A DNA stretch of 64,000 nt from positions 124,001-188,000 of the forward strand of contig JAPTJF010000060.1 in the NCBI GenBank assembly GCA_029339195.1, written 5' to 3'. This DNA comes from Micractinium sp. NFX-FRZ. Lineage: Eukaryota; Chlorophyta; Trebouxiophyceae; Chlorellales; Chlorellaceae. Numbering within the stretch: position 1 is the first letter of the stretch; each line of letters starts with the position of its first letter. The translations under genes were made by a program, and so were the position numbers. Positions 11,420 to 58,500 of this stretch are shown here, piece by piece. Below the pieces are notes generated by a model, which was not told the DNA's origin, made no database searches, and saw nothing but the letters and a program-made list of their open reading frames with translations.

Positions 11420-13369
11420 ATGACAACGAGCGCTCAGCTCCGCCTGATGAGCGACCTGAAGGTGGGCGGTGGTACAGAGGGCCTGTGCCGGCGATCATGT
11501 CGCTGCTGCCGGCGCTCGCTGCCTGCTGCCTTCCGCCGCCTCTCACCGCTGTGTGCCAACCGCTCCACTTCTTCCTGCCACGCCTGCTATGCAGGCCATC
11601 AAGGTGCGTGTGGAGGTGCTGGGGCCACAGCAAGTCGCTATATGTTTTCACTTCCAGCGGTAGTGGCGGGGCAGCACCCTGGGCACTGGGCGGCAACCGG
11701 CGTGCAAGCATGCACTACCCACGCCTCTTGGTGGAATGTTCTCCTAGCCTTTATGCCTCCCAGCCCATCAATCCCACGGATTTGCTCACTCTCCCACCAC
11801 CATCACGTTCAGCAGCCTCCTTGCTGGATGACTGATGCGTCACGCCTGGCTGATTGCCCTTTCCCCTCTCTCAACCCTGCATGCCCATTCTGTGCCGCCT
11901 GCCTGCCCGCCTGCCCTGCCTGCCTCCTGCCTGCTGCCCCTCGCTTGCCTGGCTGGCTTCTGCCCTCCCAACTGCCCTCGCTGGCTGGTGCTTGCAGGTT
12001 GAGCCGCCGGAGGGCTGCAGCGCATCGCCCCTTTCCGACGACAACTTGTTTGTCTGGGGCGCCTCGATACTGGGCCCTGTGGAGACGCCTTGGGAGGTGG
12101 GTTTGATATTACAAGAGGTGTGGTATTACAAGAGGTTGGGAGGCAGAGGTGGTTGGGACGGATGGGTGGTGGGGGGTGGGCTTGGAAGTGATGAAGGAGG
12201 GGCGGGGAGGTGGTGCACTTGCTGCGCCCCCCACCACTTCGTCCCATGCAGCTTCCAGCTGCGAATGACGCCCCTCCCTCCTTCCTCTGTGCCAAGCAAA
12301 TTCCTCTCCTTTCTCCCGCAACCCTCCCTAGCTTCTGGCCCACTTACCCCACTCACCCCTCACCACACCCTGCCCCACTCTCTCCACCCTCCCCGCCGGC
12401 CTGCAGGGCGGCATCTTCCAGCTGCGCGTCACCTTTGGCGAGCAGTACCCAGAAAAGCCGCCACGCGTGCGCTTCACCTCGGAAATCTTCCACCCCAACG
12501 TGAGTGTGCCACATCACTCCCCGTGATCATTCATTGTTGAGGAGTTGTGCATTGTAAGAGAGGGAACGTCAGTGCAGCGATGCTGTGTGACACAGCGATG
12601 CAGCAGGCCGGTGCGGGGGCAGGCTGGGCAGCGGGCGGCCCAGCGGTTGCTTCCCTCCCCACCTGCCCCGCCTGTACCGCCCCACTGTTACCTTGCGCAC
12701 GTGTACACCGACGGCACTCTGTGCCTGGACATCATCCATCCTGGAGGAAACTTGGGCCGGTGCCTGCCGCGGTACCTGCTCACCCGTATCGCCCTCCCCT
12801 CACTGTACCGCCTGCAGGTGTACAGCGACGGCACGCTGTGCCTGGACATCATTCAGGACCACTGGAGCCCCTGCCACAACATCTGCTCCATCCTGACCTC
12901 CATACAGTCGCTGCTCACAGACCCCAACTGCGCCAGCCCAGCAAACCCAGAAGCAGCGCAGGCAAGCAGGGGAAGGGGTGCTGCTTGTGTGTGGCGGTGG
13001 GCGAGACATGTGTGCGTGGTGGTATGTGGGGCGGGGGTGGGCCTAGGCGTATGGCTCTGTGTGCAAGTGTGTGCTGGCCCCTGGCGCTTTGTAGCGCGAG
13101 CGCCACTGCTTGCCTGACGATTTTGCGCTTAAAACTCTTACTTGAACTGGCCGGACTTGCACACCGCACGTGGGGCCATTCCCGCAGATGCACACCAGCA
13201 ACAAGAGGATGTGTCACCACAAGCTGTCCCAGTGCTGCTCCCTCCCTATGCCACCTCATTCGCTGTCTTTTGTTTGCTGTACTGCCCACCCCCGCAGATG
13301 TACACTACCAACAAAAAAGAGTACAACAGAAAGGTGCGCAGAATCGCGCAGAAGAGCGTTGATTGCTAG
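11420..13369 (+). CDS. UBC2: RAD6-type ubiquitin-conjugating enzyme E2
   Basis: Six exons: 11420-11461, 11595-11603 (a 9-nt microexon, Ala-Ile-Lys), 11998-12096, 12407-12499, 12818-12961 and 13298-13369. The product is 152 residues, the same length as human UBE2A and plant UBC1/2. It accepts ubiquitin on the active cysteine (Cys89, in [11 protein letters not shown]) and passes it to targets such as histone H2B or PCNA with RAD18/BRE1-type ligases. The E2 core shows [18 protein letters not shown] and [20 protein letters not shown]. Intron 5 has a GC donor (CAG|GCAAGC). Introns 4 and 5 each hold a decayed copy of the following exon start (12701 and 13188), which could mislead gene finders. Confidence 0.93.
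12701..12738 (+). repeat. Intronic copy of UBC2 exon 5 start
   Basis: About 35 of 38 bases match the active-site exon that starts 117 bp downstream at 12818, so the copy would also encode the catalytic Cys motif. The acceptor AG has become AC, so it should not be spliced in. Confidence 0.85.
13188..13223 (+). repeat. Intronic copy of UBC2 exon 6 start
   Basis: The copy lies 110 bp before the real exon 6 (13298). It keeps the CCCGCAG acceptor and the start of the Met-Tyr/His-Thr-x-Asn-Lys coding sequence. Use of this acceptor would give a different C-terminus. Confidence 0.75.
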
Positions 13370-14210
13370 CCCCGCCCCGCCTTGGGGCCGCCAGCCGCTG
13401 TGGACGGGCGCTGGCCTGACGGGCAGTGACGCCTAGCTTGGCCGTGAGGTGCACCCAAAGACTTGCTACCAGCACCGGCCATCTGCCTGCTGTCGCATGG
13501 CTGGTGTCAATTCCTTGCCCTAGGACTCACCTCCACCAACCCAATTGTTTTCTCCTTCCCACTGCGCTCTTGCTCCCTCAGCCGCTCCCTTCTTCCTGCT
13601 CGCTCCTCACGCACACGTGCTGATGCATATGTACCACCGACCCCCTCTGCCCTGTACCCCCGGCTTACCCCGCAGCCTCTTCAGCACCAACGCATGTTAC
13701 TCTGTATTGCACACACATGAACCAGCCTGTAACCCTGCGCCAGGACCCTCTGAGGAGTGCATCCCCTTGCAGCCTTGCCTGCACCGCAGGCTGCACCACT
13801 TGCGGCGCTCTGTTCGACAGAGTGCCGACACATGTCTGCAGCCAGGCCGTCTGCACGCGAGGGCTGGCCTGGCGGCTCCTCTGCGACATTTCCGACCTCT
13901 CATCGCATGCATATGCAACACTGGATGCCTCTCCGAGAGTTTCGTCGCTGCATGCTGCGTGCTGTCTGTCCCTGCCGCCAGAATGGGCCTCGCTGCACAT
14001 GGCCATCGTGTAGCCTCGAGATCGGGCTCAAGAACCCGCCGCTCGATTGCGCTGCAAGCGTCTGCAAGCTGCAAGCGTCTCCAGCCATCGCTATCTGCTC
14101 AGTCAGGCAGCCAGGCGGCCATCGTGCTACACATTGCATTCTGGACCAAGGAATTCGTCCCGCCTGAGGGTCCGGATCTATTCGACAGCGGGAGCCCCCA
14201 GTCTTGAAGC
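13370..14210. other. Intergenic between UBC2 and KAS III
   Basis: An 841-bp stretch with no credible conserved coding sequence. It should hold the UBC2 3' region (TGTAA at 13728) and the KAS III promoter. An open frame near 13757-14167 shows no family similarity. Confidence 0.55.
13728..13732 (+). terminator. Candidate TGTAA poly(A) signal, UBC2
   Basis: TGTAA 359 bp after the stop, within the expected range for algal 3' untranslated regions. Confidence 0.3.
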
Positions 14211-17200
14211 ATGGTGGCCAGCTTGCCCGCCGGCACTGCGCGGCTAGCAGCGGCCGCCCCACTGCCAGCCCCAGCAGCGATCGCCAGCAGCAGAGGACAG
14301 GCGCGGCAGCGGCGCGGCGTAGCCGCTGCTGCCGCTGCGAGCGGCGGCACTAGCGGCGGCGCAAGGCTGGGCGTGAGACTGGCGGGCTGCGGGTCCTCTG
14401 TGCCCGAGAAGTTCTTGACAAACGATGACCTGGCAAAGCTGGTGGACACCAGCGACGAGTGGATCACCTCACGCACAGGCATCAAGAAGCGGCACATCCT
14501 GTCAGAGGGGGAGTCCCTCGGGATGCACGCCGCCGCCGCCAGCCGGCGCGCGCTGGAGATGGCAGGTGCGCTGCTGCTCTCATACCAGGCTGGTTGGCGA
14601 TGAGGATGTACAGCTGCGGCCGCCATCGATGAGGATGTACAGCTGCGTCCGCCATCCAAAATGCATGCAGTGCATGACAGAAAGCCTGCACAATGCCAGC
14701 ATCGCCCGTGTGCCAAGCAGGCCAACCGCAGAGCTCGCCAGGCCCTCCCTCCTCACTCCTCCTCTTCACTCCTCCTCTGCCCTTCCTGCCTCTATTGACC
14801 TTGCCCTCCCTTGCAGGTATAGCCGCCGAGGAGGTGGATCTCGTCATCATGGCCACATCATCCCCAGATGACCTGTTTGGCAGCGCCACATCAGTGCAGG
14901 TGTGGCAGCAGCATGGGTGGAGGGCAAAACTGCTGGCTGCCGTTCACAGCGCCGGCAAGGCTGCGTCCTGGGCAGCAATCCTTGCAGCCTGCAGCAGGCG
15001 GTGGGGTGCTGCAGGGCAATGCGGGTGCAAGGCAACAGCTGCGACACTAATACCGCTGCCAGCCCCTTACCCTCGTCCCCGCCCTCACTTGCCACCCTCC
15101 TGCCCACGGTACTGCAGGCGGAGATCGGCGCCAGCCGGGCGGCAGCGTTTGACCTGACGGCGGCGTGCAGCGGCTTTGTGGTTGGGCTGGTCACTGGGTC
15201 CCAGTTCATCCGTGCAGGCACCTACAAGACGGTGCTTGTCATCGGTGCGTGGGCAGGTCGGGCTCCTGGCAGCTGGTGTGGCCTTGCAGTGTAGTGGGCA
15301 GCACTCAGGCTAGTCAAGGGTGGGTGCGGAGGACCAAGAATGGGGCCGCCCTCTGGCTTGCCTGCTGCCATGCTCTGGCCCTGTGCATGTTTGCCCTCGA
15401 TCCGCTCGCATCCCAACATTGTGTGTGTTTAAGCTGAGGCACGCTGTGCCGCTGCACCGCCTGGCCTCCCCCAGCCCCCAGTCAAGAGTGCCTGCTCTTC
15501 ACATGCACATGCGTCCGCCACGCTGTCTTCTGCTCGCAGGAGCCGACGCGCTGAGCCGTTACATCGACTGGCGGGACCGCGGCACGTGCATCCTGTTTGG
15601 CGACGCGTGCGGCGCGGTGGTGCTGCGGGGGCACGAGGGCGAGTGCGGGCTGCTGGGAGTGGACATGCACTCAGGTGGGGTGGGGGCAAGGGGTTGTTTG
15701 TATCTTGCCTTGTCCAGTGTACATGGTACAATGTGGCTGCAGATGGGAAGGTGCAGGCAAGGAAGCAGGGCATGTCGAGCTGCTAGTCCGAGCAGTTGAG
15801 CGGCAGGCGTGGGGTGTGTGCAGCTGCTGGGGGCGTGCCCTGGCCGGCCACAGGCTGGGCAGGGCGTGTCCTGGAAGCGCTGGCCTTCAGGGGATGCATG
15901 CATGTGGCAGCGGGGAGAGCACACAGCCCCCCACGGTTATGGGGTTACAGCTGGGGTGTGTGAGCACTCTGTGCTGCACACACTGGCGGTGCTGCTGCGT
16001 CCGCCCCCGCACCTCACACTGCGCACGCCCCTGCCGGGTGCGGGTGGCAGTGACACGACTGCGTGACCGCCATCTTCAACGCTCCGCCCGCCCCTATGCC
16101 TGCCCCACACGCCGCTGCCCACGTGCAGACGGCAACGGCATGCGGCACCTCAACTGCGCCTTCTCCGGAGAGGCACTCAAGCCGCTGAGCAACGGGCGCG
16201 CGAGCGATGAGGTGCGCGGGCGGGGCGGGGGTGCAGCGCCTGCATGGGGAGCGTAGGCGCTGCTGAGCTGTGGTTGTGGCGGCTTGTGTGTGATGGAGCG
16301 GGCCCGCCTGGCTCTGCCTGGCAGAGTTCCACTTTCAGCAAGAGTTTCTGTAGCCTTGGCCAGTGCAGTGCCCAGCAAGTGCTGCACATCTTCTGAGCAT
16401 GCATGCATGCTGCGCCTGTTGTGCCTACTTGGGTGCCAGTGGATAGCCGTTGTGAGCGTTGGACTGCTGCGCATTGGCCTCAACGCGTGCCCCGCCTGCC
16501 CCGCCTGCAGGGCGCCTACAAGAACCTGCACATGAATGGCCAGGAGGTGTTCAAGTTTGCGGTGCGGGCGGTGCCCACGGTGAGGAGGGGCAGTGCCTGA
16601 GCTGTGGGATGGACAGGGGTGCGGCGCGGGCTGGGTGTGGTCAGATAAGGTCAGGGCAGCGCAGGGTGGAGGTGGGGTTGACCTTGCCAGCATTAGCAAG
16701 AAGGTGAGGTGGCTGGCAGGACGCACCCAGCTGACTCTGGATGGCTGCACCCACCGGTGCACCCCGCCTCTTGTGCACCCTCATGGCGCCAAGCCGTTCC
16801 GACGGTGCTGCCCCCGGCCTTATGCCTCGAACCCTAAAACAATGTATACACATGTCCTTCGTTTGACCATTCCCCTGCCCCGCCCTCCCTGGCGCCAGCT
16901 CATCGAGGCGGTGCTGTCCCCGACCCACACTTGAAAGCTAAATCATGCAACTCGTTGTTTGTTCCACCCACCTCCCCTGCCCCGCCCCCCCGGCGCCACC
17001 CAGGTCATCGAGGCGGTGCTGCCTGGCCCTATGCTTCCAGGCACAACAAAGTAATCCTGTGTTGTGCAACTTCCCTGTCCTGCCATCCTTGCGCCAGGTC
17101 ATCGAGGCGGCGCTGGCGGACGCAGGCATGGAGAAGCAGCAGATAGACTGGCTGGTGATGCACCAGGCCAACATGCGCATCATGTCGTCGGCGGCAGACC

Positions 17201-17655
17201 GGCTGGGAGTGCCCACAGGTGCCTGGGTGTGGGTGGTGTTACAGAGTCTAGGCAACTGAGAGCTTCCAGAGCCTTTGGAGCTGATCTGCTGGGCGCACAT
17301 TATGAGGGCCTGGGCGGGCCTGCCCTGGACGCAGGAGAGCGCGCGTGGGCAGCCGGGCAGGGCAGGCAGACAGCGTGCGCGGCATTCGGCCAGCGGCGTG
17401 CATGGCACTTGCATCGTTCCCGCCAAGCTCCTGCCCGCCTGCTAACTCCCCGCCTGCCGGCCGCCCCTCTCCCCTCCCACTGCAGAGCGTGTGGTGAGCA
17501 ATCTGTCCCAGTACGGCAACACCTCGGCTGCCTCCATCCCTCTGGCACTCGACGAGGCGGTGCGGCGGGGGGACATTAAGGCTGGAGAGGTGCTGGCCAT
17601 GGCTGGCTTTGGGGCGGGCCTCACCTGGGCCTCCGCCATTGTGCGCTGGGGCTGA
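14211..17655 (+). CDS. KAS3: 3-oxoacyl-ACP synthase III (KAS III), plastid type
   Basis: Eight exons: 14211-14565, 14817-14899, 15118-15244, 15540-15674, 16129-16211, 16511-16579, 17098-17218 and 17486-17655, giving 380 residues. KAS III condenses acetyl-CoA with malonyl-ACP to start fatty-acid synthesis in the plastid. The first 55-60 residues are Ala/Arg/Ser-rich without acids, like a chloroplast transit peptide. Then follow [16 protein letters not shown] and [17 protein letters not shown] (family signature). The catalytic triad is visible: Cys163 in [10 protein letters not shown], His306 in VMHQANMRI and Asn336 in [11 protein letters not shown]. The end [16 protein letters not shown] is typical. 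Intron 6 contains two decayed copies of the exon 7 start. Confidence 0.95.
14599..14655 (+). repeat. Tandem duplication of about 28 bp in KAS III intron 1
   Basis: Two nearly identical units, each holding GATGAGGATGTACAGCTGCG, lie directly after one another inside intron 1, soon after the donor. Confidence 0.7.
16899..17022 (+). repeat. Two intronic copies of KAS III exon 7 start
   Basis: Copies begin at 16899 and 17004, before the real exon at 17098 (spacing 105 and 94 bp). Each starts with an AG acceptor and TCATCGAGGCGGTGCTG, then diverges. Confidence 0.85.
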
Positions 17656-18195
17656 GCTGAGCAGCCTGCTGGCGTGCCCTAGTCCCCACCCTGGGCCGCC
17701 TGCCAGCGCTGCCAGCCCAGGCTCTGCTTGCATGTGCACCCGGCCGGTGCGGTCAGCCTGGCCTGGCCAGCACAACGGCTTTGTGAGCAGCCGGCGCCTG
17801 CAGGCAGCTTGGTGGTTGTGAGCCCCTTCACCTCATGTTGTTGTGTGTGTTTGTTGAGGGGGCGCTTGGCTGCGCAGCCGTGTGCATGTGAATCCGTGGT
17901 GCTGCCTCTGCTCTCCAGCGCATTGCTCCCCCCTTTCCAGTTTTCCAGTTGCCCCCCATCCCTTCCTGCGACTCCCTTGGCCTCCCTGCGGATTCATGTC
18001 CCCCCCTGTCTCCTCCCTTTGCTTCCTGCCTTTTTTGCTCGCCCGGTGCCGTGCACACTGCCCCACCACACCATGCTGTGCACCAAGGAGTGTACTCCCT
18101 CCACATGCCACATGAACAGCCAAAGCAGCCAACAACGTGTCAATGCACTGTGATGCACACTTTCACAAAGGCCAGCCGTCCCTCATCTGCCTGAC

Positions 18196-20271: not shown

Positions 20272-23200
20272 ATGGTGGGTGATTCTGGACACTAACTGCC
20301 TCCTGATACCGCCAGCACGCCCCACAACGCCTGCCTGACCAACCGCGCACCGCGATCGCCCCTTGCCCCTCCTGCAGCCGCTGCGGCTTGATATCAAGGC
20401 GAGTGGGACAGCAGATCACGCGATGGCGCGGCGCCGGGCCTCGGGGAGGCGCCAGGAGGGAGGGCTGTGCACTGCTGCACCGTGCCGCCCGCCCACCGCC
20501 TGCCGCTGCCCGCTGGTCACGCCGCCTGCGCCGCTGCCTGCTGCTGCATGCCTGCCACGACCCCCTCTCTGCAGAAGGTATTTTCGCAGCGTTCTGACCG
20601 CGTGAAGAGCGTGGAGCTGCATCCCACAGAGCCATGGTGGGTGCACGCACCGGCGTCAGCAGAGGGGGTGCACCAGCGCGGGGCGAGCCGCCTTGCGAGG
20701 CGGTACTGCTGAGTTTGATATTACAACCTGCACTGCTTGCTTGATGCAGGATTCTGGCCTCCCTGTACAACGGCAATGTCTACATCTGGAACTATGCCGA
20801 GCAGGTGCTGAGAGGGGGAGGCATGGAGGGACGCCTAGTTGAGGGCAGCCTCAATGTGGCTGCTGGCGGCGGTGCAGCGGGCTCATGCCAGCAACGGGCC
20901 AACCGTGTTTGTTGTTGGCGGTGTTTGTGCTGCGCAGCTTCTTCAGTAGAGTGTGTTGCTGCTGGCACGTTGGTGCATGTGATGCCCTGTGGCTGCGCAT
21001 AGTCAAGTAGAGGCGTATGAGGGAGCCCGTCGGCCGTGTGGCAGCAGCCACGGTGTCGGCTACATGCCCTCCCCCCCTCATCTGCCGCCCGTGCTGCCTT
21101 TCTCTGGCCGGGTCGCATGATGTGGACCCGGAACTCTTCCCGCCCCTGCAGTCCCTGGTCCAGCCGTATGATGCCCTCCCTCGTTGCCTAATGCGCTCCC
21201 TGTGTGCTCCTTCCCCTGCATCCCTGTCCCCTGCGCAGTCCCTGGTCAAGTCATTTGAGGCAACCGACCTGCCCGTGCGCACCGCCAAGTTTGTGCCGCG
21301 CAAGCAGTGGGTGGTGTGCGGCGCCGACGACATGTTTGTACGGGTGTACAACTACAACACGATGGACAAGGTGAAGCAGTTTGAGGCGCACACCGACTAC
21401 ATCAGGTGCGCGCTGTGGACTGCTTTGACTTTGAGGGACGTTTAAGATGTTGAAGGCTTGGGCCCTGGGAAGATGCCGTGTGTATCATGTTGAAGCACTT
21501 GAGATGCAAGTGGGTGCTGGTTTGGGGGGCGTGGACGTGCCCTTGTGATGGGCCAGTGAGATGGTGAACGTGGCAGGCAGGTGAATTGGAAGGCATGCAG
21601 GGCGGGCAGGACACGCCCAGCAGGCACTGGCAGCTGTGTGGCTGCAAGGAGGCTGGCACTCTGGGCATCCCAGCTCGGCAGCTTGGCAGGGGTGTGCACC
21701 GGGGCCTGATCCACACTGCCGTAATATGCCTGCCCTGGTCTGATTGTGCGTGCCGTGCAGGCACATCGCGGTGCACCCCACGCTGCCCTACATCCTCACC
21801 TGCTCCGACGACATGCTCATCAAGCTGTGGGACTGGGACAAGGGGTGGGCCTGCACCCAGATCTTCGAGGGGCACTCGCACTATGTCATGCAGGTGCGTG
21901 GGGGTGGGCTATGCAGGCGGGGCGGGGCGGGAGGTGCGGGGGCTGATGGGGTCGGGTGCAGCCGGGGTGCCAAGCACAGACAGCAGCGCTGACACCTGCA
22001 GCACGGCCTGGTGTGGTGCATAGGGACGTCGGGTGACGGCAGCAGTGGGCATGCAGCAGAGGTGGGTGCTGCCAGAGAGCGGTGGCATTGTCACAAGAGG
22101 CAGCGGCAGTGGACATGTGGGGGCCAAGCGCCAGAGGCAGCGGCAGCTCTTGGGGCACGTGCATGGCATCGTCCCACCAGCACCTGCAATGCTGGCGCCC
22201 CATATTCCACCGCAATTGCTCCCCTGCAGCTGGTGTTCAACCCCAAGGACACCAACACCTTTGCCTCGGCCTCGCTGGATCGCACGATCAAGGTGAATGG
22301 GGCGTGGCAGAGCGGGCGGGCGGGCGCGGCATGTGCCAGTGTGCGACGTTGACTGCACACGTGTGTGCCGAATAGATGATTGAGTGGGCGCGTTGCGACA
22401 GATGGCTGTTGCGCGTGCTCAGCAGAGCGTGTCTCGCTGTGCGGCCACCGACCGCCCCGCCGCCGCAGGTGTGGAGCCTGGGCAACCCCACCCCCAACAT
22501 GACGCTGGAGGGGCACGAGAAGGGGGTCAACTGCATCGACTACTACTCCGGTGAGGAGGGCTGCTGAATTAGTGAATCAGCTGTCGTTGTGTTTAGTGGG
22601 GCCGGGAGGAGGGGTGAAATGCTTGGACTGCTACTTTGGTGAGGTTGCCGAGCAGCTACAGCACAGAAGCTAGAAAATTGATTGGGGGGTGGGAGGAGGG
22701 GTGGACTGCGTGGCCTACCATCCCAGTAAGGCGGGGCCTGCCGAGCACAATACATGAGTCGCAGTTTGGTTCATCAGGGTTGGGAGGAGGGGGCGAGACT
22801 GCATGGCCCGCCCACCCGGTAGGGGCAGGGTGGCGCCCCAGGGGTCGTGTTGTGCCGGCACTGCCCTGCCGCTTATGCCACACATGCCGACACCATGTTT
22901 GCTATGCGGCACACAAGCCTCCCCAGTGCTGCCCTGTTGCCCCCGCGTTGTCACACCCTGCCCCATCCTGCCCCTGCTCCGACTGTTCTCTCCTTTACCT
23001 GCTGCGGTTGCTCCCTCGTTGTTACCCACTGCCCCACCTGCCCCTGCTCCCAATCTGCTTCCCCCCCTACCCGCAGGCGGCGACCGCCCCTACCTGGTGT
23101 CTGGCGCCGATGACCGGCTGGTCAAGGTGTGGGACTACCAGACCAAGGCATGCATCCAGGTGCGCACCGGGTTGTGGGTAACGCTATGGCGAGGTAGTGG

Positions 23201-26200
23201 CACAATGGCTGAATGAACAACCGGAAGGCTGGTTGAGGTGTGGGGCTACCAGCCCAAGGCGTGAACCGCAACCTGCGGCTTTTGTGGAGGGCTAGTCTGG
23301 TTTGTGGTGTGAGGGCTGTCAATAGGCGGCGGCCTGTACTCCGGCTGCGAGTATGTGTAACTGTATCCAGCTGCAGCAGCGCTGCACCAGGCCCCTCCTT
23401 GTTTGTTTGACTGACTGGTTGCGTGCCCCCCCTGCTCACCGATCGATATGTCCATGCTTCACGCACTCAGCATGCCCCACCCACCTCGCCCTCTCCTCGC
23501 CCCCACTCCTCCCACCACTGCCACCGACCTGACAGACCCTGGACGGCCACTCCCACAGCATCTCCACCGTCACCATCCTTACCCCTCTGTGCCCTCTCCT
23601 TGCCCCACTCGGTGTCCCCCTCTCAGACCCTGGACGGCCACTCCCACAACATCTCCACCGTCTGCTTCCACCCCGAGCTGCCCCTGATCCTGACCGGCTC
23701 CGAGGACGGCACCGTCAAGCTGTGGCACTCCACCACGTACCGGCTGGAAAACACGCTCAACTATGGGATGGAGCGCGTGTGGGCGGTGGGATACGTCAAG
23801 GGCCAGAACTCCATCGTGGTCGGGTGAGTGCCTGCTGGGTGGCTGGCAGGCTGGCAGGGTACATGGCAGGGGTGTTGTGCTTGGCCAGCTGCAACGGTGT
23901 AGAGGCGCAGCTCCACGCTGTGCGGTCCCGCCTGCCTGCCAAACTCCCACCCTGGCCACCCTCTGTTCAGCATTGCTGTTGCACCGTGCGCTTCCTGCCG
24001 TACAGGCAGGCTTATCCTGGCCACTTGCCTTGACCTCAAACCTCCATCTTCCCTCGGTTTCTCCCCTGCAGCTACGACGAGGGGTGCGTGATGGTGAAGA
24101 TGGGGCGGGAGGAGCCGGTGGCCTCGATGGACGCCTCGGGCAAGATCATCTGGGCACGGCACAACGAGGTGCAGACGGTGAACGTCAAGTCGCTGGGAGA
24201 CGCGGAGGAGGTGAGCGCCCGGGGAGGCCACATGGGGGTTGGGGGGAAGGACGGGGGGAGGTGTGGCGAAAGGCAAGCTGCTGCAAGACGTGTCAGGAGG
24301 CTGCATGAGGCTGCAGAAAGGGCTGCTCCTCTCCTACCGCACCGGTGCCCGGCTTATCAGCCACCTCCGGCTCCTCCCGCTGACCCCTCGCCCCACCCCG
24401 TCCCTCTCTGTGCCCTCCCTCCCTCTCCCCCCTCCCGCCCCCCGCCCGCCTGCAGACCGATGGCGAGCGTCTGCCGCTGGCTGTCAAGGACCTGGGCTCC
24501 TCGGACATCTACCCCCAGTCCCTGCAGCACTCCCCCAACGGCCGCTTCGTGACGGTGTGTGGCGACGGCGAGTACGTCATCTACACCGCCCTCGCCTGGC
24601 GCAACAAGAGCTTCGGGCAGGCGCTGGAGTTTGTGTGGGGCGACGACTCAAACGTGTTTGCCACCCGCGAATCCTCCAGCACCAGTGAGTGGGGGGCGCC
24701 GGGGGTGGGGAGGCGTGACCGGCGTCGTGCAAGTGAGACAGGCCGAATGAGAGCAGCGGCTGTGCAGTGGCTGTGTGGGCACGCGCTGGCGGTTGCCAGT
24801 CTTGCACAGCACCAGACCAGGCGCGCTCTAGACAGCAGGCGGGCAAAGGAAGGGCAGGTGTGTGGGCACTAGGGGTGAAGACAGCGGGGCACAGGCAGGC
24901 ATAGTTGGCCGCATGGGAGAATGGTGAATGGGGCAGGCAGCAAGCAGGGAGATGAGCAGGCCCAAGCACGGGCGCCGGGGTGAGACCAAACAATCAAAAG
25001 ATCAAACCCGAGGCCGTGCCGTGCCTTCCAAAGTGCCTCACACTGCGCGGCCTGCCCCTCCAGGGGCTGAATGTGGTTGGATTCGCTTAAATCCGGCCCA
25101 GTGTATGTGCAGGGACCGACAGGGAGTGTGCGGAGCGCACAAGGTGGGCTTGCGCATGGACTCGCTCACCATGTGCAAGCCCACCTTGTGCGCTCTGCCC
25201 GCTCCCTGTCTGCCCCTCCCACATACGATGCGCCAAATTTCACCGAGTCCAACCACATTCAGCCCCCGGAGGGGCAGGCTGCAAGCAGGGGGATGAGCAG
25301 GCCCAAGCACGGGCGCCAGGGTGAGACCAAATGATGAAAAGCAGCGGCTGTGCCGTGCCTTCCAAGGTGCCTCACACTGCGCGGCCTGCCCCTCCGGGGG
25401 CTGAGTGTGGTTGGACTCGCTGAAATCCGGCCCCAATGTATGTGGAGGGACCGACAGGGAGTGCGCAGAGCCCACAAGGTGGGCTTGCGCTGGACTCACT
25501 CACTATGCGCAAGCCCACTTTGTGCGCTCTGCCCGCTCCCTGTCGACCCCTCTCACATACATTGTGCCGGATTTCAGTGAGTCGTTCCACATGCAGCCCC
25601 CGGAGGGGCAGGCAGCAAGCAGGGAGGTGAGCAGCCCCAAGCACGGGCGCCGGGGTGAGACCAAACGATCACAAGCAAGGGTCGTGCCGTGCCTGCCAAA
25701 GTGCCTCACTGCGCAGTGCACGCACAGCCGCTGCTTTTGATCGTTTGGTCTCACCCCGGCGCCCGTGCTTGGGCCTGCTCATCTCCCTCGTGCGCCTGCA
25801 AAAACAGGGAGACGAGAGCCCACAGCCTTAGTCAGGCTCCCTGGCTCCAAGAGTGCGGCCAAGCGCTGTGCTGAGTGCGTTGCAATGCAGCAAGGCTGCA
25901 GCCAGCTGGAGTTCAGCCAGACAAGACCAGGCCGCCGCCTGCCAGCGCTCCCCTTGCAGCCGGCCGGCCTCATGGCCACTTCTTGACACTCGGCACCGGC
26001 TTACCCGTATGCGGATCAAGCGCCGCGCCTGCTCCCGCATGAATGCATGCCTTGGCCAGTGCGGCCCAGACCACACTGCAACATTCAGGAGGCGCGCTGG
26101 CAGCCGCCCTTCTGTTTGCCTGCCCATGTTCCTATTGCCGTAAGCACGCCCAAACCCCCTGTTTCTCCTGTCGTGACCTCGCTTACACCCCATGTGTGTG

Positions 26201-48097: not shown

Positions 48098-51000
48098 TCA
48101 CTGCTGCTTGCACTCCTGCGGCTGCTCCTTGGCGTCTGCCGGGGGCGCGGGCATCCGCTTCTTGTCATCCCCCTCGTCATCCTCGTCATCGTCATCCTCA
48201 TCGTCCTCGTCATCGTCGTGGTCGCCCTCCTCGTCATCCTCCTCCTCATCACCCTCCTCATCCTCCTGCAGGGCGCCGGGTAAAGGGCAAGTCAAGGGGC
48301 GGCCGAGTGGCGTGTGGGGGGGCAGACAGGCAGCGACCTGAGCAGCAGTGCACGGAACAGGCGGGCTGAACAGCAGGTGTGGCAGGGGTGCTGGCGGGGG
48401 ATGGTGCAGCGTGTGGGAAGCTCGTTGCAGCGCAGCGAGGAATGACGTCGCCCACGGCAACACCCGCGCAGCACCCGCGTAGCACAGCGCAGCCCAGGCT
48501 GGCACAGCGCCAGCTCAGCGCACCTCCTCCTCAAACTCCTGCAGCGCCTCCCCGGTGAACCAGGCGGTGGCCTCCGGGATCACCTTCTCCCTGCACACGT
48601 ACAGTACGTTGAGGGAATGGTTGGGTGTGAGGTTGTGCAGGAGCAGGAGGAAGAGGGGAGGAAGGGTGGTAGAAACCGGGTGCAGAAAGGATGGGCATGA
48701 GAGGGGGACAGGGGGGCAAAGGGATCACTGCTAACTGGCTAGAGGGGTGCATGGACAGTCCACGGGCAGGCCGCCAGGCCGGAAGGTGAGCAGGCACGGC
48801 ACCGCACAACTGGCTAAGCAAGCGCCGCCCAGCCCTTCCCAAACCCTCTCCCTGCATTTGTTAAAAGACACCGTGGATGACGACTCCACAAATTTCATCA
48901 CGTACACGACCTCACAGGCCCATGCCTCTCACATCCCACAGGTCCCCACCCCTTGCAAGCACCAGCGCCTTACACCTCAAATGCAACCGCTCTCAACCAC
49001 GCCGCAATAAGGGTCCACTCACTTGATCATCTCGGCAATCTCAAAGTCCCCCTGCATGTCCTCCTCCAGCGCCTCCATCTCCTCCTGCGTCAGCTCAGCC
49101 TCCTCATCCTCCTCCGGGATCTGCGGGTAAAGAAACACAGGGTGTGGAGAGCGCTTGCATTGCGCAGTAGGGGGACAGCTATAGGAGTGCACCCCCTCCT
49201 GCGTCAGCTCATCCTCCTCCGGGATCTGTAAGTCAAATGGGCAGGTGGGTGCAGGGGTAACATTCACTCATACAGCGTGAAAGAGTGGGACAGGTAGAGA
49301 GTGTGCACTCGCTCCAGGGTCAACCCAGCCTCCTCGTCCTCCTAAGGATCTACGGGGGGGACAGGGGCGAAGACGGGTGACCAGCATGAGCATGTGCATT
49401 TCTTTCAAGAGATAGGGGACAGCCAGAGAGCGTGCACCTCCTCCCTGGGTTGGCCCAGCCTCTGCCTCGTCCTCGGGGACGTGCGGGCGGGGCAGGGGCG
49501 GGGAGGGCATTCGTATGTGAGCAATAGAAGAGGCAGCTGGAGAGTGAGCACCCTCCTGGTCCCTTGACAACTCAGCTGTCCCAGCCTGCAACACGTCCAC
49601 CTGCTGCACACCAACGCCCCTGCTAGGCGATAGGATTAAGGTTTATAGGGTTAGGGTTATAGGGCGCTATACCCTATCGGCCTCACCTCTGGCACCTCGG
49701 TGAACCAGCGGAAGAAGGACTCCACAGGCTCCGTCTTGGTCTGCGGCTTGCCGCCCTTGGAGCCTGCAACGGCATAGGTTGGGGAGGGAGGGCGGTGGTG
49801 GGCGGGCGGTGGGCGGCGGCGGGTGCAGGTGCAAGCAAGCACGCGGGCGGCGGGCGAGGGTGCCGGTGCTCGGCACGACAGTGACCAAACCAGGGCTGCC
49901 CACACAAGGCGCACAGCACCCTCACCAGCCTTCCCTGGGCCACCCCATGCCTCAAGGCGTCCCATTCTGTGGTGTGTGTTACTCTAACCCAATCAAGCGC
50001 AGCCGCCCACCTGGCTTGGGCTTCTTCTTCATCACCTTGACCGTCACATCCTTGCCCGACTTCCACTTCACACCAGAGGCTGCAGGTGCAGGGAGGCAGC
50101 GGGGAGGGAGGGGCGAGGAAAGGGGCGGGTCAGGGCAGGGCAGGGCAGGGCAGCGGGGGGGGCATGCTGGGCAGCTGCTTCGGATGCAGGGGGGGCAGAG
50201 TGGCAGGGCCCTTTACCCGCGGGTCACACGCTGCTGCACGTCTGGCTCGGCTGCGTTTGCCGTGCCTCCACCTCAGCATTGCCACGTCGCCATGCACCCA
50301 GCTCAGCGCATCACTCACTCTCCACCTGGGCGTACTCGCCATTCACCCCACACACCCCACCCCTCCACATCAGCAACACTGCCAGCTCAGCGTGCACCAC
50401 ATCACAGCAGCGTGGACCAACAGTTCTGGAGATAATAACCCTTGTACCAAATCAAAAAAAAAACAAGGTTGTCACTCACTCTCCACCTTGCGCAGCATCA
50501 TGTCGTCCTCGTCGCTCAGGTGGTACGTCTTCACCAGCTGGGCGTTGGAGAAGAATGGGTTCTCGCTGAACGTGAAGACAAGGCGGAAGCCCTGCATGCA
50601 GGGGTGGGGGTGAGCAGGAGCAGTGCACAGCATGTGTGTTGCAAGGGGGAAGGGGGGAGGAGGGGTTGTGGAGAGCGTGAAGACGAGGCGGAAGGCCTGC
50701 AGGCGGACAGGCGGGGAGAGCAGCGCACAGCATGTGTGTTACAAGGGGGACGGGGCGAAGACGGGTTGTGGAGAGCGTGAAGATGAGGCGGAAGGCCTTG
50801 CAGGGGGCGGGGGTGAGGAGGAGCAGTGCGTTACGAGGGAGGTGAACAGGGTGGAGACAGCAGTGCGGGATGTCGCTGTGCGGGAGAAAGGAGGAGAAGC
50901 AGGGTTTGCCACGAGAGACAAGGTTCCGTTGGGGGAGCCCTGCACTGCAGGGAGGACAGCAGCAGCCCCACGTGAGGAAGAAGTACATGGAGAGACAGAC

Positions 51001-52952
51001 AGCAGTGCTACAGAACAGGCAGCGCACCTCGTCCTCCTCATCCTCCCCAGTGTCTCCCACCAGCAGTACCCCGCCAGCAGTACCCAACCAGAAGTACCGC
51101 CTCGTTCACCGGTACCACAGAACAGGCAGCGCACCTCGTCCTCCTCGTCCTCCCCAATGCCCCCCTCGGTGCCGTGGAAGCGCTCGCAGCGCACATCCGT
51201 CAGGTAGGACAGCACCTCGGCATCCTTGTCGTTGATCTGCACAGGAGGAGATGGCGGGAACAGGGAACAACGTCGGGTTCGACAGGACTCGCGCCCGTCT
51301 TGGTTGGGTCTGCACACCACCCGGTTTGCCAGTCAGGCTGGCAGGGATGGCAAGAGCAGGCGCACAACTGGCAGGGAAGGCCACGTCAGCCAGTCGGGCC
51401 ACATGGCATTCACATGGTTTCTCATCCCCCAGCCCCCTGTCGACCTGCCTCGCCCCAACACACCGCGCCTGGCACCCAAGCCCCTCCTGCACATACAACA
51501 ACACAAGCCTCCCATCCCCCTCACCGTCTCCTCCTCCATCGCGTTGCGCAGCGCACACATCCAGAAGTCGGGGACGCCTGAGGGCACATCCGCCTCCTCG
51601 GCGGCCAGCGCCTGCTTGCCCTCCTCTGCAGCAGGTATGGGGGGTGGTGTGGGGGTGAGGTTCCATGGGGGAGGGGTGGGTGATGCAGGCAGCAGGATGA
51701 GGGGCTGGGAGAGCCCAGCGACAGAAGGGAGGCGTGCGGGGAAAGCGGGAAGCTCCTGCTGGCCCCGCCTGCCACGGCAGCTGCAAACACACACAGACAG
51801 CGCCCTGTGCAGCACAAGCAGCCTGCCTCGCCAGTCTCGTTCTCGGGCGCCTCTGCTGCATCCCGCCCCGCCCCGCCCCGCCCTGCCCCACCCCCGCCTC
51901 TGGCCGCGCCCTATCTTCGCAGCAGAACCACACAAGGAGCCGGCCTCACCAGTCTCGTTCTCGGGCACCTCCTTGGCGCCGGTGACGACGTCGCGGCGGG
52001 TGTCGTACAGCGGGGTGTACAGCTTCTCGTACTTCTCCTCCAGCGCACGCCGCTCCTCCCTGCACGAGTGTGGGGCAGGGCAGAGGATGAAGGGAAGACG
52101 GGAGGCGTGCACGGGGCACACGCATGCAAGCACGGCCCCCTTTGGGCCCAAGCCTAGCCCACTCGCCAGCCAACTTGCAAGCCCTGCCCTGTACCGTCTT
52201 CTCCCCTTCCCCCACAGGCAGGTGCCTGGACCACACTGCCTTGTTCCGTGCGGGCAAACGCTCAGCATGAACCAGCCGTACTGCTCACCGGTAGCGCTCG
52301 TACAGCTCCGCCCGCTCGCCATCGAGCTCCGCCAGGTATGCAATGCGCGTGCGCACCGGAGCCGGCAGGCTCTCGATGTAGCCGCTAGACTGTCCCACCA
52401 TGCCGTTCAGGGAGCGCTGCATGGGTGGGGGGCACGCGGGACGAGAGGGAGGGAAAGAGGGCGGCTTGAGGGCGGCGGGTGGGAGGCGGGAGGAACAGGC
52501 GGCCGCGGTTGTGCCCGGGAGGTGCGAGGGTGGCTGACTAGCTTGGGCGCGGGCGGGCTGGCAATATCCTCATTGGCAGCAGAGGAGGCGAGAAGGGAAG
52601 CAGCACCCCATAGCAGCAGCACCGTTGAGGCAGACGGCAACGGCAGCGGCAGCGGTGGCGGCGGCGGCAGGTCGACGGCCGGCTTGCCTGCAGTGCCTCA
52701 ACCAGCTGTGTGTTGCCGCCGGCCATAAGCTGACGGAGGACCTCCTGCATTGCAGAGGATGAAGCATGTTGGCACGTCTCATCACTGGGGGCGGCGGGGC
52801 ATGGCGCCTACTGATTGCAGGTTACAGTTGGGGGTTCCGACTACCGGAAGCCCTTCCAAAGCATTTGCAGGCGACAGCAGCGGCCAACTCACAGGGGAAA
52901 CCTCGAACTCGGCGTCCCCAGCGCCTGCCTCCTGAGCCTCCCTCCTGGGCAT
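48098..52952 (-). CDS. NAP1: Nucleosome assembly protein 1 (NAP1)
   Basis: Twelve exons on the minus strand: 52952-52893, 52744-52688, 52416-52289, 52059-51950, 51625-51525, 51236-51135, 50591-50480, 50079-50011, 49763-49687, 49120-49023, 48590-48524 and 48265-48098, giving 382 residues. NAP1 is an H2A-H2B chaperone. The core shows RRALEEKYEKLYTPLYDTRR (dimer helix), VPDFWMCALRN, FSENPFFSNAQLVKTYHL and VESFFRWFTEVPEIPEEDE. A Glu/Asp tract follows, and the protein ends CKQQ, the farnesylation box of plant NAP1 proteins. Intron 2 has a GC donor (CAG|GCAAGC). Four exon edges have intronic copies, the clearest before exon 10. The start MPRREAQEAG is the first in-frame ATG with a good donor. Confidence 0.93.
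49197..49480 (-). repeat. Array of intronic copies of NAP1 exon 10 start
   Basis: Minus-strand copies start at 49225, 49349 and 49480, upstream of the real exon start 49120 (spacing 105, 124 and 131 bp). The nearest keeps its acceptor and reads ATCCCGGAGGAGGATGAGCT; the next keeps AG but is mutated; the farthest has lost AG. A still weaker copy may lie near 49597. Confidence 0.88.
50671..50796 (-). repeat. Two intronic copies of NAP1 exon 7 start
   Basis: GTGAAGACGAGGCGGAAGGC and its near twin recur 105 and 205 bp above the true exon 7 start at 50591. On the minus strand they keep the coding sense (FRL.FT-like). Confidence 0.85.
51028..51058 (-). repeat. Intronic copy of NAP1 exon 6 end
   Basis: The acidic exon end and its GTGCGC donor recur 107 bp into the intron (CGCACCTCGTCCTCCTCATC on the plus strand). 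Confidence 0.85.
51832..51862 (-). repeat. Intronic copy of NAP1 exon 4 end
   Basis: CCAGTCTCGTTCTCGGGCGC on the plus strand repeats the true exon 4 edge at 51950, 118 bp apart. The donor is altered from GT to GC. Confidence 0.88.
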
Positions 52953-53749: not shown

Positions 53750-55084
53750 TCACGCGTACTTGGAGATCAGGTTCTTCAGGCCATCCTTGGAGGCGCCCAC
53801 CAGCTCGTCAACCTTGGCACCGTTCTTCCACACCTGCCGCGGGTCGGCAAATAAAAGAAGAAGAAGCAACTTGATGGCATGGGCAGGCAGGCGGCTGGCC
53901 AGGTGTGGGCGGGGCGCACAGCCGGGGATGCGCTGAAAGGGCCCCTTGCTGTTCACCGGAGCAGCCATCAGGGCACCGCGTGCACAACAGCACACTCTTG
54001 CAGGCAGAGACAGAGAGGCGGGCACGACGGCAGTCGTCCAACACAGACGCAGCGGGCACAGCAGGCACGGCAGGCAGACCTGGAAGGTGGGCATCGCGCT
54101 GATGCCGCACGCCGCCGCCACCTGCTCCACCTCGTCGACATCCACCTGCAACACGCATGGGAATCCATGAAGGGGTTTGAACATATGGATACAATTGTGA
54201 GAAGCGCCACCTGCTCAAACTCTAGCACAGGCGCCAGGTGGGCCACAGAGCGGTGCATTGGGCCGCGTGCGCAGCACCGCCTGCCCTGCCTGCCGGCATC
54301 ACCAAAACTTGGCACACCAGGCAGATGCCCTGCCCCCTCGCCTTCCCCTTTGCCACTCGGCTGCATTCCAGGACTCTGCTGCCCCTCACCTCAACAGACA
54401 CCCCGCCAGTGAGCTCCTCGCTCCGCTTTACTCAACCCAAGAAACCGTGCACTTTCTCCATCTATCTCCCCTTCTACTTATCTTGTCCTTATCCCCACTG
54501 CTGCATTTTCAAACCACTCACCTTGAGGAACACCACTCCGGTGAACTCCTCGCTCAGCGCCTCAAAGATGGGGCCAATCATACGGCAGGGGCCGCACCAG
54601 GTGGCGGTGAAGTCCACCACAATCGGCTTGCCGCTGTTCTCCGCGTGCTGCGCATCCCACTCCGCCTTGCTGCAGGGCCAGGTTGTGGACGGGAGGGAAA
54701 TGCGGTGAGCACGGGAAGCAAGGTGTGTGGGTGGCGAGGAGGGAGCGAGAGAGGAAGGGGAGGGCACGCGTAACGCTGGCACAGCGGCACGGCAGCTGGC
54801 TGACGTGAGCGGACGGCGGCAGGGCTGTGAGCGCTGACCCGGCCACCGCGTTGCTCGCATGTAGCACACCTGCCCTCAACCGCCGGACAGACACCGAAGC
54901 AAGCAAAACAAGAGGGTAGAGCGAAGGAGGCAGAGCGCGGCTGGCGATCAAAAACGAGGCTCAAGAGCGGCCCGGCGCGCCCAGTCACTGGATCGCGAGC
55001 TGCTGATATGACTTGGGCTCAAATTCAGTGGCGCAGGTGGCGCACTGCTCACCTGTGCACAACGATCACCTTGCCGCCGGCCAT
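53750..55084 (-). CDS. Thioredoxin, h type
   Basis: Four exons on the minus strand: 55084-55053, 54669-54522, 54145-54080 and 53833-53750, giving 109 residues. Thioredoxin reduces protein disulfides in the cytosol using electrons from thioredoxin reductase. The active site WCGPC (Cys36, Cys39) sits after [10 protein letters not shown] and before [14 protein letters not shown]. The cis-proline motif is SAMPTFQ, followed by [14 protein letters not shown]. There is no transit or signal peptide, and the length fits the h type. It shares a 465-bp promoter region with the RING-PHD gene. Intron 2 holds a copy of the exon 2 end. Confidence 0.95.
54390..54425 (-). repeat. Intronic copy of thioredoxin exon 2 end
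   Basis: AGTGAGCTCCTCGCTC on the plus strand matches the exon edge (GGTGAACTCCTCGCTC) 132 bp away. The minus-strand GT donor (GTGAGG) is kept. Confidence 0.85.
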
Positions 55085-55549: not shown

Positions 55550-58500
55550 ATGGCTGCCCCGGCCAAAAGCCCGCTGGCGGAGCTGGTCTGTGGCGTGTGC
55601 CAGGATGATTTGATGACTGAGGATGGGGGGGCAGAGCTGGGAGAGCTGGACTCGTGCAACCACCGGTGAGCTGCGCAGTTGGCACCCCCAAAGTGATGTC
55701 ACTTTTGTGTGCCCAAGAGCTGCATGGCTTTCTGCCTAGCTCTCAAGCAATGCCATCGTGGCATGCTTCCCCCTGGCGGTCGCTTCTGCCTGCTTGCTTG
55801 CCATGCGGTATTGCCGCTACTGCCACAATCTCCCACATGGCCTGCCCACTCCCACCCACCCCACTTGCAGCTTCTGCTACCCCTGCATCGCCAAGTGGGC
55901 AGAAATCGAGAACAGCTGCCCATTCTGCAAGCAGCGCTTTGGGCGGCTGCGGCGCAAGCGGCTGCCGCCCCGGTCCGCCCTGCTGGGGCTTGACCAAGCT
56001 GGCAAGCCGGGCGGGTGGCTGAGTGGGTGGGAGCAAGCGCATGCGGTCAAGTGGCGTGGCTGCCTGCCTATCTTCGCCTACCTGCTCACTCTCTGATGCA
56101 ATGGTTTGGCTGCCAAAACCGCAGGGGAGCTGCCGGGCATCTATCTGGACAGCCAGGACGTTGAGCAACGCAACCAGGTGGGGTGCAACCGCGAACTAGG
56201 GCATTCTGTTTGAGCGCATGTGCCTTGGCGCTGGCATGTTGGTAGTTGCAGCAGCAGGTGGTTGGTAGTTACAGCAGCAGGTGGAGGAAGAGGAGGAGGA
56301 TTAGGGTCCCACCAAACAAGGCCACTTACAATGGAAGCTTGCCCTCCTCCCCTGTCTACCCCCCTGCAGCGCGTGGTGTTTGACGACCCCCAGTTTGCGC
56401 GCTGGATCGAGGAGGTGGCCTGCCTGGCGTGCGGGGGCGGTGACAACGAGGACCAGCTCCTGCTCTGCGACGGTACGCGCGTCTGGTCACACCGCATGTG
56501 TTGGGCTTGTCGGCTGTTTTTTTTTTTGTCTTGGGCTGAAACTTATGAGGGGCTGGGGGCTCAGGGACAACGAGGACCAGATCCTGCTCTGCGACGGAGA
56601 GGGGGCACACACGCAGTCAGGACGCTCAGGTCCTTTTGCAAGACAGAGAGCAGACAGTTCACTAGTGCAAGCCAGCAAAAGGGAGGGCAGGGAGGTAGCA
56701 GAGATGTAGGGGGCGTGGGGAGTGGCGTGTGTGCGCTTGTTTGAAGCCAGCAGGCGGGCTGAGCCATCCCATGGCAGCAGACGGTTGGGCATCTTGCCAG
56801 TGCACGGGGGGCTTGCAGCGCCTGCTCACCAGCCTGCACCCGCGTGCCCGCTCCCCTCCCGCCCCGGCCGCCTTGCCCGCAGACTGCGACCGTGCGTGCC
56901 ACACCTACTGTGCGGGTCTGCAAGGCATCCCAGAAGGCGAGTGGTTCTGCCCTCGGTGCACGCAGCAGCGGGCGCAGCCGCGGCAGCGCCGGCGCCAGCC
57001 CGCAGCTCGGCCGCCGGCAGCAGGGCGGCGGCGGCGGCGCCAGGAGGTGGAAGAGGAGGTGATAGACCTGTCTTCCTCGGATGACGCAGAGGAACAGGGC
57101 GGCGGTGGCGCTGCCGGGCGCCGTGCAGTGCAGCGGCGCCGGGCGGCAGCTCCGGCAGGCGGGCGCAGCCGTGGCGCCGCTGCCGGGGGGCGTCGCCGGG
57201 CGGCAGCAGCAGCAGNNNNNNNNNNCGATTGGCTTGCCTCCGAAGGCGGCTCCCCCGGCGTCCGCCCTGCAGCCAGGCGCGGCGCCAGGGCGGCGGCGGC
57301 CGGTGCGCCCCGCCAGCAGCGGGCACAGCGCGGGGTTGCCGCCGGCAGCAGGGCGGCTGGCGCGCGGCGGGGCGGCGGGCAGCAGCGCCGGCGGCGGGGC
57401 TCCGCTTCCGGTGGCAGCGACGAGTCCACACATGAGCGGTATGGAGACGACTTGGGTAAGAGCAGACTGTGCCAGCTGGCAGGCGGTGCTGGCCGCTACG
57501 GACATCGCCGGCTGGGAAGCATGCTTGACGGCAGTGCCGGCTGCTGCTGCCTGCAGGCCCCTCTGGCTGGTTCATGCCAGCTGCCCTGGATTCCGTGGCT
57601 CGGCTACTTGGTTGACGAGTTATGCTGCATTACATGCACGCAGCTGCCCCTGCCTGACCCTCATGCCACAGCTTATAAAGACTGTGTACATAGTGTCCCA
57701 CCGTGTCTTTTGCAGAGCCAGAGGCGACCTTCAGCGACAGCGGTGAGAGCAGCGAGGAGGAGGAGGGAGATGAGGAGGTACCGCTGCTGGCCCGCCTGCA
57801 GCGCCGCACCGCCGCCTCTCGCCCCTCCCGCGGCAGCAGGGGAAGCGCCAGGGCAGCAGCAGGCAGCAGGGGGCGGCAGCAGGGGCGCAGCGGCGCAGGG
57901 GTTGCAGCAGGGGGCGGCAGGGGCCGGCAGGCGGAGGAGGTAGAGGGGCCCACGCGTGATCATAGGTGAGTGAGTGAGTGAATGAGGGAGGCAGGGAGGC
58001 ACTTCTGGGCAGGGCAGTCTTGCGTGCCGCATGCAACCTTCGCAGCCATCTGCCCTGCTGTGCGTACCCCCACTCCCTGGCTCCTGCAAACCGCCGCTGT
58101 GCCGGTGTGCAGCACACCAACTGGCCGCGCGCAGCACCCCAGCACCAAGCAGCACCAGCAAGCAGCTGCGCCGCTGCCTTGTCTCTTGCGCTGCACTGCA
58201 GGGCTGCAGGAATGCAAGTGCCCCTGGCGCCAGCAATGAAGGGTTGTTAAGCAAGCGCACTGCTGCTTGGCCTTGTGCTGCAGGAATGTGAGCGCTATAA
58301 ACGCCAACTGGGACAGCCTGCGGCGGGGGGACACCACGTTTGGTGACCTGCGCGGCACCGCCTCTGCCAGTGGCAGCCGCGTGGCATCCACAGCAGGCGC
58401 AGCAGCAGCGCAGCAGCCACAGCGGCGACGGCTGGTGCGTGCCGGCGCGCTTGCTGGCGGCAGCGGCGGCACCACTGCAGCGCCGGCGGCAGCAGATTTT

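What the first reader, a model, noticed from the sequence alone, without database searches (positions are those of the whole stretch)
12701..56596. Introns built from tandem copies of neighbouring exon edges
At about 19 exon borders in UBC2, KAS III, COPB2, TLDc, NAP1, thioredoxin and RING-PHD genes, the flanking intron contains 1-3 decayed copies of the exon edge, about 26 in total. The spacing is narrow, 87 to 132 bp. Copies of exon starts lie before the exon, and copies of exon ends lie after it, many with a working-looking AG or GT. Nearer copies are usually better preserved. This suggests a recurring process that duplicates segments of roughly 100 bp across splice junctions, so introns grow in steps and spare splice sites are made. 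The steady unit length is unlike random duplication. I know of intron gain by tandem duplication as an idea, but not of this repeated pattern as a genome-wide feature.
Basis: partly seen in the sequence, partly recalled or inferred. Interest (0 to 1): 0.88.

Follow-up and report, generated by a model that had tools for sequence, protein, structure and literature searches.

The report
Algal introns lengthened by edge duplications
In a Chlorella-like green alga about one intron in six holds a decayed copy of the edge of its neighbouring exon roughly 100 bases away, which points to a recurrent small tandem duplication across exon-intron borders that lengthens introns step by step.

Summary
Self-comparison shows a sharp excess of local direct repeats at 70-130 bp, with a second hump near 200 bp, in the window and in 250 kb from 25 other contigs; shuffles give none. 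With my own gene finder, 71 of 797 testable exon edges (66 of 423 introns) have a copy in the adjoining intron; controls are near zero. 61 of 71 nearest copies lie 69-142 bp away (25% expected). Donors and acceptors are hit alike. Median intron length rises by roughly 100 bp per copy (232, 320, 403, 543 bp).

Best explanation: recurrent tandem duplication of 70-140-bp units spanning the junction; the intronic exon copy then decays without coding constraint, leaving spare splice sites. Repair of staggered breaks is a plausible cause, but inferred.

The kind is known (a potato junction duplication; human repair duplications). The narrow size and frequency look like a new variant. Unexplained: the intron half of the unit has diverged more than the exon half predicts. 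No RNA and no relative's DNA was available, so use of the copies and the order of events are not shown.

The parts
12697..12855 (+). UBC2: copy of exon start at 12697-12738, true exon start from 12818 (12814-12855); spacing 117
13181..13314 (+).
16871..17115 (+). KAS III: two intronic copies of the exon start (borders 16898, 17003) before the true exon (17098)
22523..22731 (+). COPB2: exon end plus donor 22523-22556 with copies at 22611 and 22698; spacing 88, 87
23116..23263 (+). COPB2: exon end 23116-23152 and copy 23227-23263; spacing 111
23533..23662 (+). COPB2: copy of exon start 23533-23571 and true exon start 23624-23662; spacing 91, 97% identical
26639..26800 (+). COPB2: copy with polypyrimidine stretch and CAG 26639-26706, true acceptor and exon start 26732-26800; spacing 93
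26862..27029 (+). COPB2: exon end 26862-26906 and copy 26985-27029; spacing 123
27767..28036 (+). COPB2: two intronic copies of the exon start (borders 27771, 27877) before the true exon (27985)
28099..28271 (+). COPB2: exon end plus donor 28099-28161 duplicated at 28207-28271; spacing 108 (36 codons, open frame)
29744..29897 (+). COPB2: copy of exon start 29744-29782, true exon start 29859-29897; spacing 115
38481..38625 (+). gene 36764-40322: exon end 38481-38514 and copy 38592-38625; spacing 111
42023..42186 (-). TLDc gene: exon end (donor border 42145) and copy (42025); spacing 120
42690..42954 (-). TLDc gene: unit of about 135 bp in two copies around donor border 42803
49081..49500 (-). 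NAP1: three intronic copies (borders 49234, 49350, 49480) of the exon start at 49120
50568..50829 (-). NAP1: two intronic copies (borders 50696, 50796) of the exon start at 50591; units of about 100-105 bp with intron part still alike
51010..51165 (-). NAP1: exon end (donor border 51134) and copy (51027); spacing 107
51813..51971 (-). NAP1: exon end (donor border 51949) and copy (51831); spacing 118
54382..54558 (-). thioredoxin: exon end (donor border 54521) and copy (54389); spacing 132
56430..56597 (+).

Best explanation
The nuclear genome of this Chlorella-like alga undergoes recurrent tandem duplication of short segments, mostly 70-140 bp with a median spacing near 106 bp. When a segment spans an exon-intron border, the gene stays intact if splicing keeps the border next to the rest of the exon, so the duplicate is absorbed into the intron. 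The intron grows by about one unit and a spare border (exon edge plus AG or GT) is left inside it. The spare exon piece then decays freely while the true exon is conserved, so such copies stay recognisable longer than purely intronic duplicates. Repeats of the event make ladders. Shown: excess in all sampled parts together, narrow spacing, donor/acceptor symmetry, stepwise intron length, decay without coding constraint, near-identical young arrays. Inferred: that the cause is repair of staggered double-strand breaks (fill-in of overhangs, then end joining), and that splicing mostly ignores the copies.
For: Offset peak in window and 25 other contigs, none in shuffles. Copies at 33 of 397 donors and 37 of 400 acceptors against 0 of 3693 and 3 of 3710 controls. 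61 of 71 nearest copies at 69-142 bp; ladders such as 106/212, 98/194, 114/230/360. Intron length 232/320/403/543 bp for 0/1/2/3+ copies. 15 near-full-unit pairs: exon columns differ at 46 of 466, intron columns at 231 of 1306, the ratio expected when one partner is conserved. Codon-position differences 55/546, 60/545, 85/543 and spacing modulo 3 of 27/26/18: no coding constraint. L013:1163-1777 holds near-identical 106-108-bp units with acceptor and exon start. 22 of 37 intron flanks show homology at p<=0.2, 7 of 37 at p>0.5. Acceptor copies have polypyrimidine-rich flanks, 0.69 against about 0.56-0.59 at that distance in introns without copies.
Against: The intron half of the unit is less alike than a one-rate decay predicts: 17 of 50 flanks at p<0.05, 13 of 37 in the gap-tolerant test where power should be 0.9 or more at the implied age; a neutral simulation expects 73-89% of flanks above a score that 18% reach; identity steps up at the splice border. 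The L013 leftmost unit has an identical exon copy with an unlike upstream flank. Exon parts are only 22-64 nt in 39 of 40 edges, narrower than random placement of a 105-bp unit would give. No RNA data and no relative's DNA.
Confidence: 0.68

Rival explanations
1. Exon-edge insertion with filler: only the exon edge with a few intron bases is copied, the rest of the spacing being new filler, as in templated repair insertions.
For: Sharp identity step at the border; no detectable flank homology in part of the pairs; L013 leftmost unit; two fillers have no source elsewhere in the genome.
Against: Flank homology in a large share of pairs (22 of 37 at p<=0.2) and 15 near-full-unit pairs; random filler would rarely supply a working acceptor with polypyrimidine tract.
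Confidence: 0.15
2. Splice-aware copying: a transcription- or splicing-linked process copies exon edges with their splice site into the intron.
For: Border-sharp similarity; exon parts of 22-64 nt.
Against: Equal use of donor and acceptor edges (32 and 39); full-unit tandem arrays including intron sequence; no exon-exon junction seen in the copies that I printed.
Confidence: 0.07
3. The copies are kept by selection as alternative exons, alternative splice sites or decoys.
For: Splice dinucleotides kept in 27 of 37 border-anchored copies; the COPB2 donor copy at 28207 is in frame and open.
Against: Retention equals plain decay (78% expected, p=0.31); no codon-position signature of coding; spacing not a multiple of three; copies are partial exons.
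Confidence: 0.05
4. Old tandem duplicates whose exon parts are kept alike by gene conversion while the intron parts drift.
For: Exon parts more alike than intron parts; young homogeneous array at L013.
Against: Conversion should also act on the intron halves; the excess of weaker, more decayed copies (total about 13% of edges against 6-8% above score 28) is what ordinary decay predicts.
Confidence: 0.04
5. Chance similarity, low-complexity sequence, coding repeats or assembly error.
For: 10 of 97 pairs are exon-exon, including the ankyrin block.
Against: Shuffles and cross-intron controls are near zero; most copies are decayed, so not assembly duplicates; spacing sharply peaked.
Confidence: 0.01

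Closest known systems
Junction-crossing tandem duplication in a potato RdRp gene (Ma, Lan and Niu 2016, PMC4974935; parts 1-2 of 5 read)
   Same: A tandem duplication crossing an intron-exon border; splice signals inherited from the parental border; [quoted passage not shown]
   Different: One case, which made a new intron confirmed by RNA; here dozens of borders with a narrow unit size, mostly lengthening introns, and no RNA proof.
[quoted passage not shown] passages read)
   Same: Small tandem duplication inside genes that supplies splice sites.
   Different: The model duplicates an exonic segment to make a new intron; here units span an existing border and the copy lies within an existing, longer intron.
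Repair-mediated proximal duplications in vertebrates (Pace et al. 2009, PMC2671141; abstract and two result sections read)
   Same: Short local duplications attributed to break repair, including splice sites (4 partial exon/intron donors of 824).
   Different: Donor and acceptor at least 50 bp apart by design, distances up to kilobases, tandem cases excluded; here head-to-tail spacing near 106 bp.
Small tandem duplications by CST and Pol alpha-primase fill-in at 3-prime overhangs (Schimmel et al. 2021, PMC8355091; passages read)
   Same: A mechanism giving head-to-tail duplications whose size follows the overhang.
   Different: Shown at induced breaks in mammalian cells; not tested in algae or here.
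Direct repeats near intron borders (Rogers and Bendich 2025, PMC11782384; abstract only)
   Same: Direct repeats at intron borders read as repair traces.
   Different: 4-30-bp repeats near both borders of an intron; here mostly 22-64-nt copies of one border about 100 bp inside the intron.

Membership tests
Junction-spanning tandem duplication (potato type) | Duplicated unit includes both intron and exon sequence | tested here: met
   15 near-full-unit pairs; arrays at L013 and NAP1. For a share of the pairs flank homology is not detectable.
Junction-spanning tandem duplication (potato type) | Copies head to tail, spacing equal to the unit | tested here: met
   Ladders of near-equal steps; alignments longer than the spacing in several pairs.
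Junction-spanning tandem duplication (potato type) | Relatives lack the duplication (polarity) | not testable with these tools
   No DNA of related algae is held; only proteins were found.
Intron gain by AGGT tandem duplication | A new intron bounded by the two copies of an exonic segment | tested here: inconclusive
   Introns with copies are much longer (median 350) than the spacing (median 106), which does not suit it; presence or absence of introns in relatives was not tested.
Introner or other mobile intron element | Same element at many loci | tested here: not met
   Two fillers searched in the whole genome match only themselves or their own array; other fillers were not searched genome-wide.
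Break-repair duplication (fill-in at staggered ends) | Origin at a double-strand break | not testable with these tools
   Needs new events or mutants; inferred only.
Mutually exclusive or alternative exons | Copy keeps coding constraint | tested here: not met
   Codon-position differences 10.1, 11.0, 15.7%; copies are partial exons of 22-64 nt in 39 of 40 edges.

The most novel reading that the evidence does not exclude
Copying is aimed at splice borders: a process tied to transcription or splicing copies about 40 nt of exon edge with its splice site into the intron at a near-fixed distance of about 100 bp, so that introns in this lineage are built largely by one border-directed mechanism.
Probability: 0.1. 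Interest if true: 0.88.

Novelty: new variant of a known kind. Interest (0 to 1): 0.62.

Why it matters
How introns lengthen and where spare splice sites come from is mostly inferred from single cases. Here one genome seems to record many events of one type with a measurable unit length, so that growth rate, decay and splice-site choice could be measured directly. It also offers natural tandem-acceptor and tandem-donor tests of spliceosome choice, and warns that gene predictors will misplace exons at such borders, as mine did in COPB2.

Tried and rejected
Chance: rejected by shuffles and cross-intron controls. Ankyrin coding repeat at 45895-46635: real but ordinary. Alternative exons: no coding signal, no modulo-3 bias. 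Faster loss of decoy splice sites: a first count (16 of 27 AG, 11 of 23 GT) suggested it; restricting to border-anchored copies removed it (27 of 37 against 78% expected, p=0.31). One-rate neutral decay of the whole unit: does not fit the intron flanks; a gap-tolerant test recovered part of the missing homology, so exon-only copying is kept as a rival, not claimed. Filler as dispersed repeat: not found for two fillers searched. Allelic copies to date events: no second COPB2 copy found in the assembly. Acceptor-like sites near -100 in introns without detected copies: no clear excess. Rows dropped: ankyrin rows; exon pieces under 25 nt; copies whose similarity begins more than 4 nt from the border or with short flanks; exons under 90 nt and scores under 34. 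My gene models have no RNA support, and 10 of 17 predicted window proteins were checked against Pfam.

Print search; judging by titles and abstract starts of the listed papers, and by passages in the few that I opened, none describes this pattern. The Chlorella variabilis NC64A genome paper is not held; I have a vague, unverified recollection that it may mention repeats of exon ends in introns, which would lower the novelty.
Full report
What was checked. The window is part of contig C60 of a 66-Mb assembly in 838 contigs. A predicted KAS III protein matches Micractinium tetrahymenae at 89% and Chlorella vulgaris at 84% identity (best 120 of 3134 listed), so the organism is Chlorella-like. I compared the window with itself, then 25 stretches of 10 kb from 25 other contigs; together 314 kb, about 0.5% of the genome.

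Is it more than chance? Yes. Self-blastn gives a sharp offset peak at 70-130 bp and a smaller one near 200 bp. With score >=40 and offsets 30-5000, 26 of 42 hits in the window and 54 of 113 outside it lie at 70-130 bp; three dinucleotide-preserving shuffles give none at any offset. The window count includes two coding ankyrin pairs at d=99.

Gene models. I wrote a self-trained gene finder. It converged on AG|GTGAG-like donors and TGCAG-like acceptors; with a 75-bp minimum it gives 423 introns, median 245 bp, and exons of median 104 bp. Of 17 predicted window proteins, 10 were given to Pfam and all 10 matched: UBC, KAS III, two parts of COPB2, NUBP-type ATPase, TLDc, NAP, thioredoxin, RING and a Rubisco methyltransferase substrate-binding domain. 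A solved beta'-COP (5a1u) aligns along the second COPB2 part, and its residues 598-616 are matched twice, exactly at the donor duplication 28099/28207. These are predictions without RNA.

Exon edges and copies. Comparing up to 45 nt of each exon edge with its own intron, 33 of 397 donors and 37 of 400 acceptors score >=28; against introns of other loci 0 of 3693 and 3 of 3710 do. With edges of up to 55 nt and repeated search, 71 edges have 103 copies, in 66 of 423 introns: 52 of 338 outside the window and 14 of 85 inside. Including weaker signals, the excess reaches about 13-14% of edges on each side at distances near 100-120 bp. The nearest copy has median distance 106 (IQR 94-125); 61 of 71 lie at 69-142 bp against 25% if copies lay anywhere in the same introns. 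Multi-copy edges form ladders such as 106/212, 98/194, 107/213 and 114/230/360. Loci differ: L013 has 13 affected edges among 23 introns, and 7 of 24 loci with introns have none (chi-square p 0.0009, or 0.09 without L013).

Intron growth. Median intron length is 232 bp without a detected copy (n=357), 320 with one (44), 403 with two (13) and 543 with three or more (9); any copy against none, p 1.6e-13. Long introns offer more room for a copy, so part of this could be opportunity, but steps near the unit length are what stepwise growth predicts.

Anatomy. In 15 near-full-unit pairs with an exon part, exon columns differ at 46 of 466 and intron columns at 231 of 1306. At L013:1163-1777 near-identical units of 106-108 bp, interrupted by an assembly gap, each hold an acceptor and 30 nt of exon start; I take the gene from its translation to be importin-like (recalled, not searched). 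The copied exon part reaches 22-64 nt into the exon in 39 of 40 measurable edges. Copies differ from the exon at 55/546, 60/545 and 85/543 sites in codon positions 1, 2 and 3. A freely decaying copy of a conserved exon should show a modest third-position excess: from the heterozygosity reported for Auxenochlorella (fourfold 3.44%, intron 4.02%, zero-fold 0.84%; passage of PMC12636532) I estimate a ratio of about 1.4-1.5, and the observed ratio is 1.49. Spacing is not a multiple of three (27/26/18). Border-anchored copies keep AG in 18 of 24 and GT in 9 of 13, as plain decay predicts.

What does not fit. If the whole unit decays at one rate, the intron half should still be recognisable in most pairs. 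A simple test finds flank homology in 17 of 50 (p<0.05); a neutral simulation expects 73-89% of flanks above a score that only 18% reach. Mean identity steps from 0.43 (control 0.36) at -10..-6 to 0.77 (control 0.29) at the first exon bases of acceptor copies, and from 0.29 (control 0.30) to 0.70 (control 0.34) at donor copies; the five positions next to the border carry splice consensus. A gap-tolerant test gives 13 of 37 at p<=0.05, 22 of 37 at p<=0.2 and only 7 of 37 above 0.5, while its power at the implied age should be about 0.9 or more. A NAP1 pair shows how this can arise: the distal part of the unit is nearly identical while the stretch next to the acceptor is changed by gaps and substitutions. 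I think low-complexity intron ends simply change faster, but exon-edge-only insertion remains a live rival. The leftmost L013 unit supports that rival (exon part identical, flank 51%); polypyrimidine enrichment before acceptor copies supports full-unit duplication (0.69 against 0.56-0.59).

Mechanism. Tandem duplications at random places would be removed inside exons and decay unseen inside introns; across a border they survive and stay visible because one partner is conserved. I did not model whether visibility alone explains this skew. Donor and acceptor edges are hit alike (32 and 39), which argues against a splicing-templated process. The most plausible source is repair of staggered breaks, where fill-in of overhangs yields head-to-tail duplications (PMC8355091, passages); that step is inferred.

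Comparison. The nearest published case is a duplication crossing an intron-exon border in a potato gene, which made a new intron (PMC4974935, parts 1-2 of 5). Human repair duplications include four partial exon/intron donors among 824 (PMC2671141, abstract and two sections). The AGGT model makes introns from exons (PMC3443670, passages) and is related, not identical. I found no description of a narrow, genome-wide pattern like this in the listings named under Tried and rejected, but the held library lacks most subscription papers, the NC64A genome paper among them.

Verdict.

Noticed in passing
window 24809-26041: A repeat element with tandem and inverted parts (334-bp units) inside the COPB2 gene; related pieces at 72-96% identity on at least C10, C11, C48, C56, C145, C744 and C809. 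It made my gene finder split COPB2.
   Followed up: partly
window 28099-28271: The 108-bp COPB2 donor duplication is in frame and open, so use of the second donor would add 36 residues absent from the solved beta'-COP.
   Followed up: partly
L013:1163-1777: Young array of 106-108-bp units with acceptor and exon start, interrupted by a run of N in the assembly; a candidate length-variable locus.
   Followed up: partly
window 12000-17700: UBC2 and KAS III are neighbours here, and one Chlorella vulgaris database protein (P0050) carries both domains, perhaps a fused annotation of the same neighbours.
   Followed up: no
L006:1610-2163 and L024:6495-6780: Local repeats with both copies in predicted coding sequence (offsets 87-146 bp), not examined.
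   Followed up: no
[quoted passage not shown]
   Followed up: no
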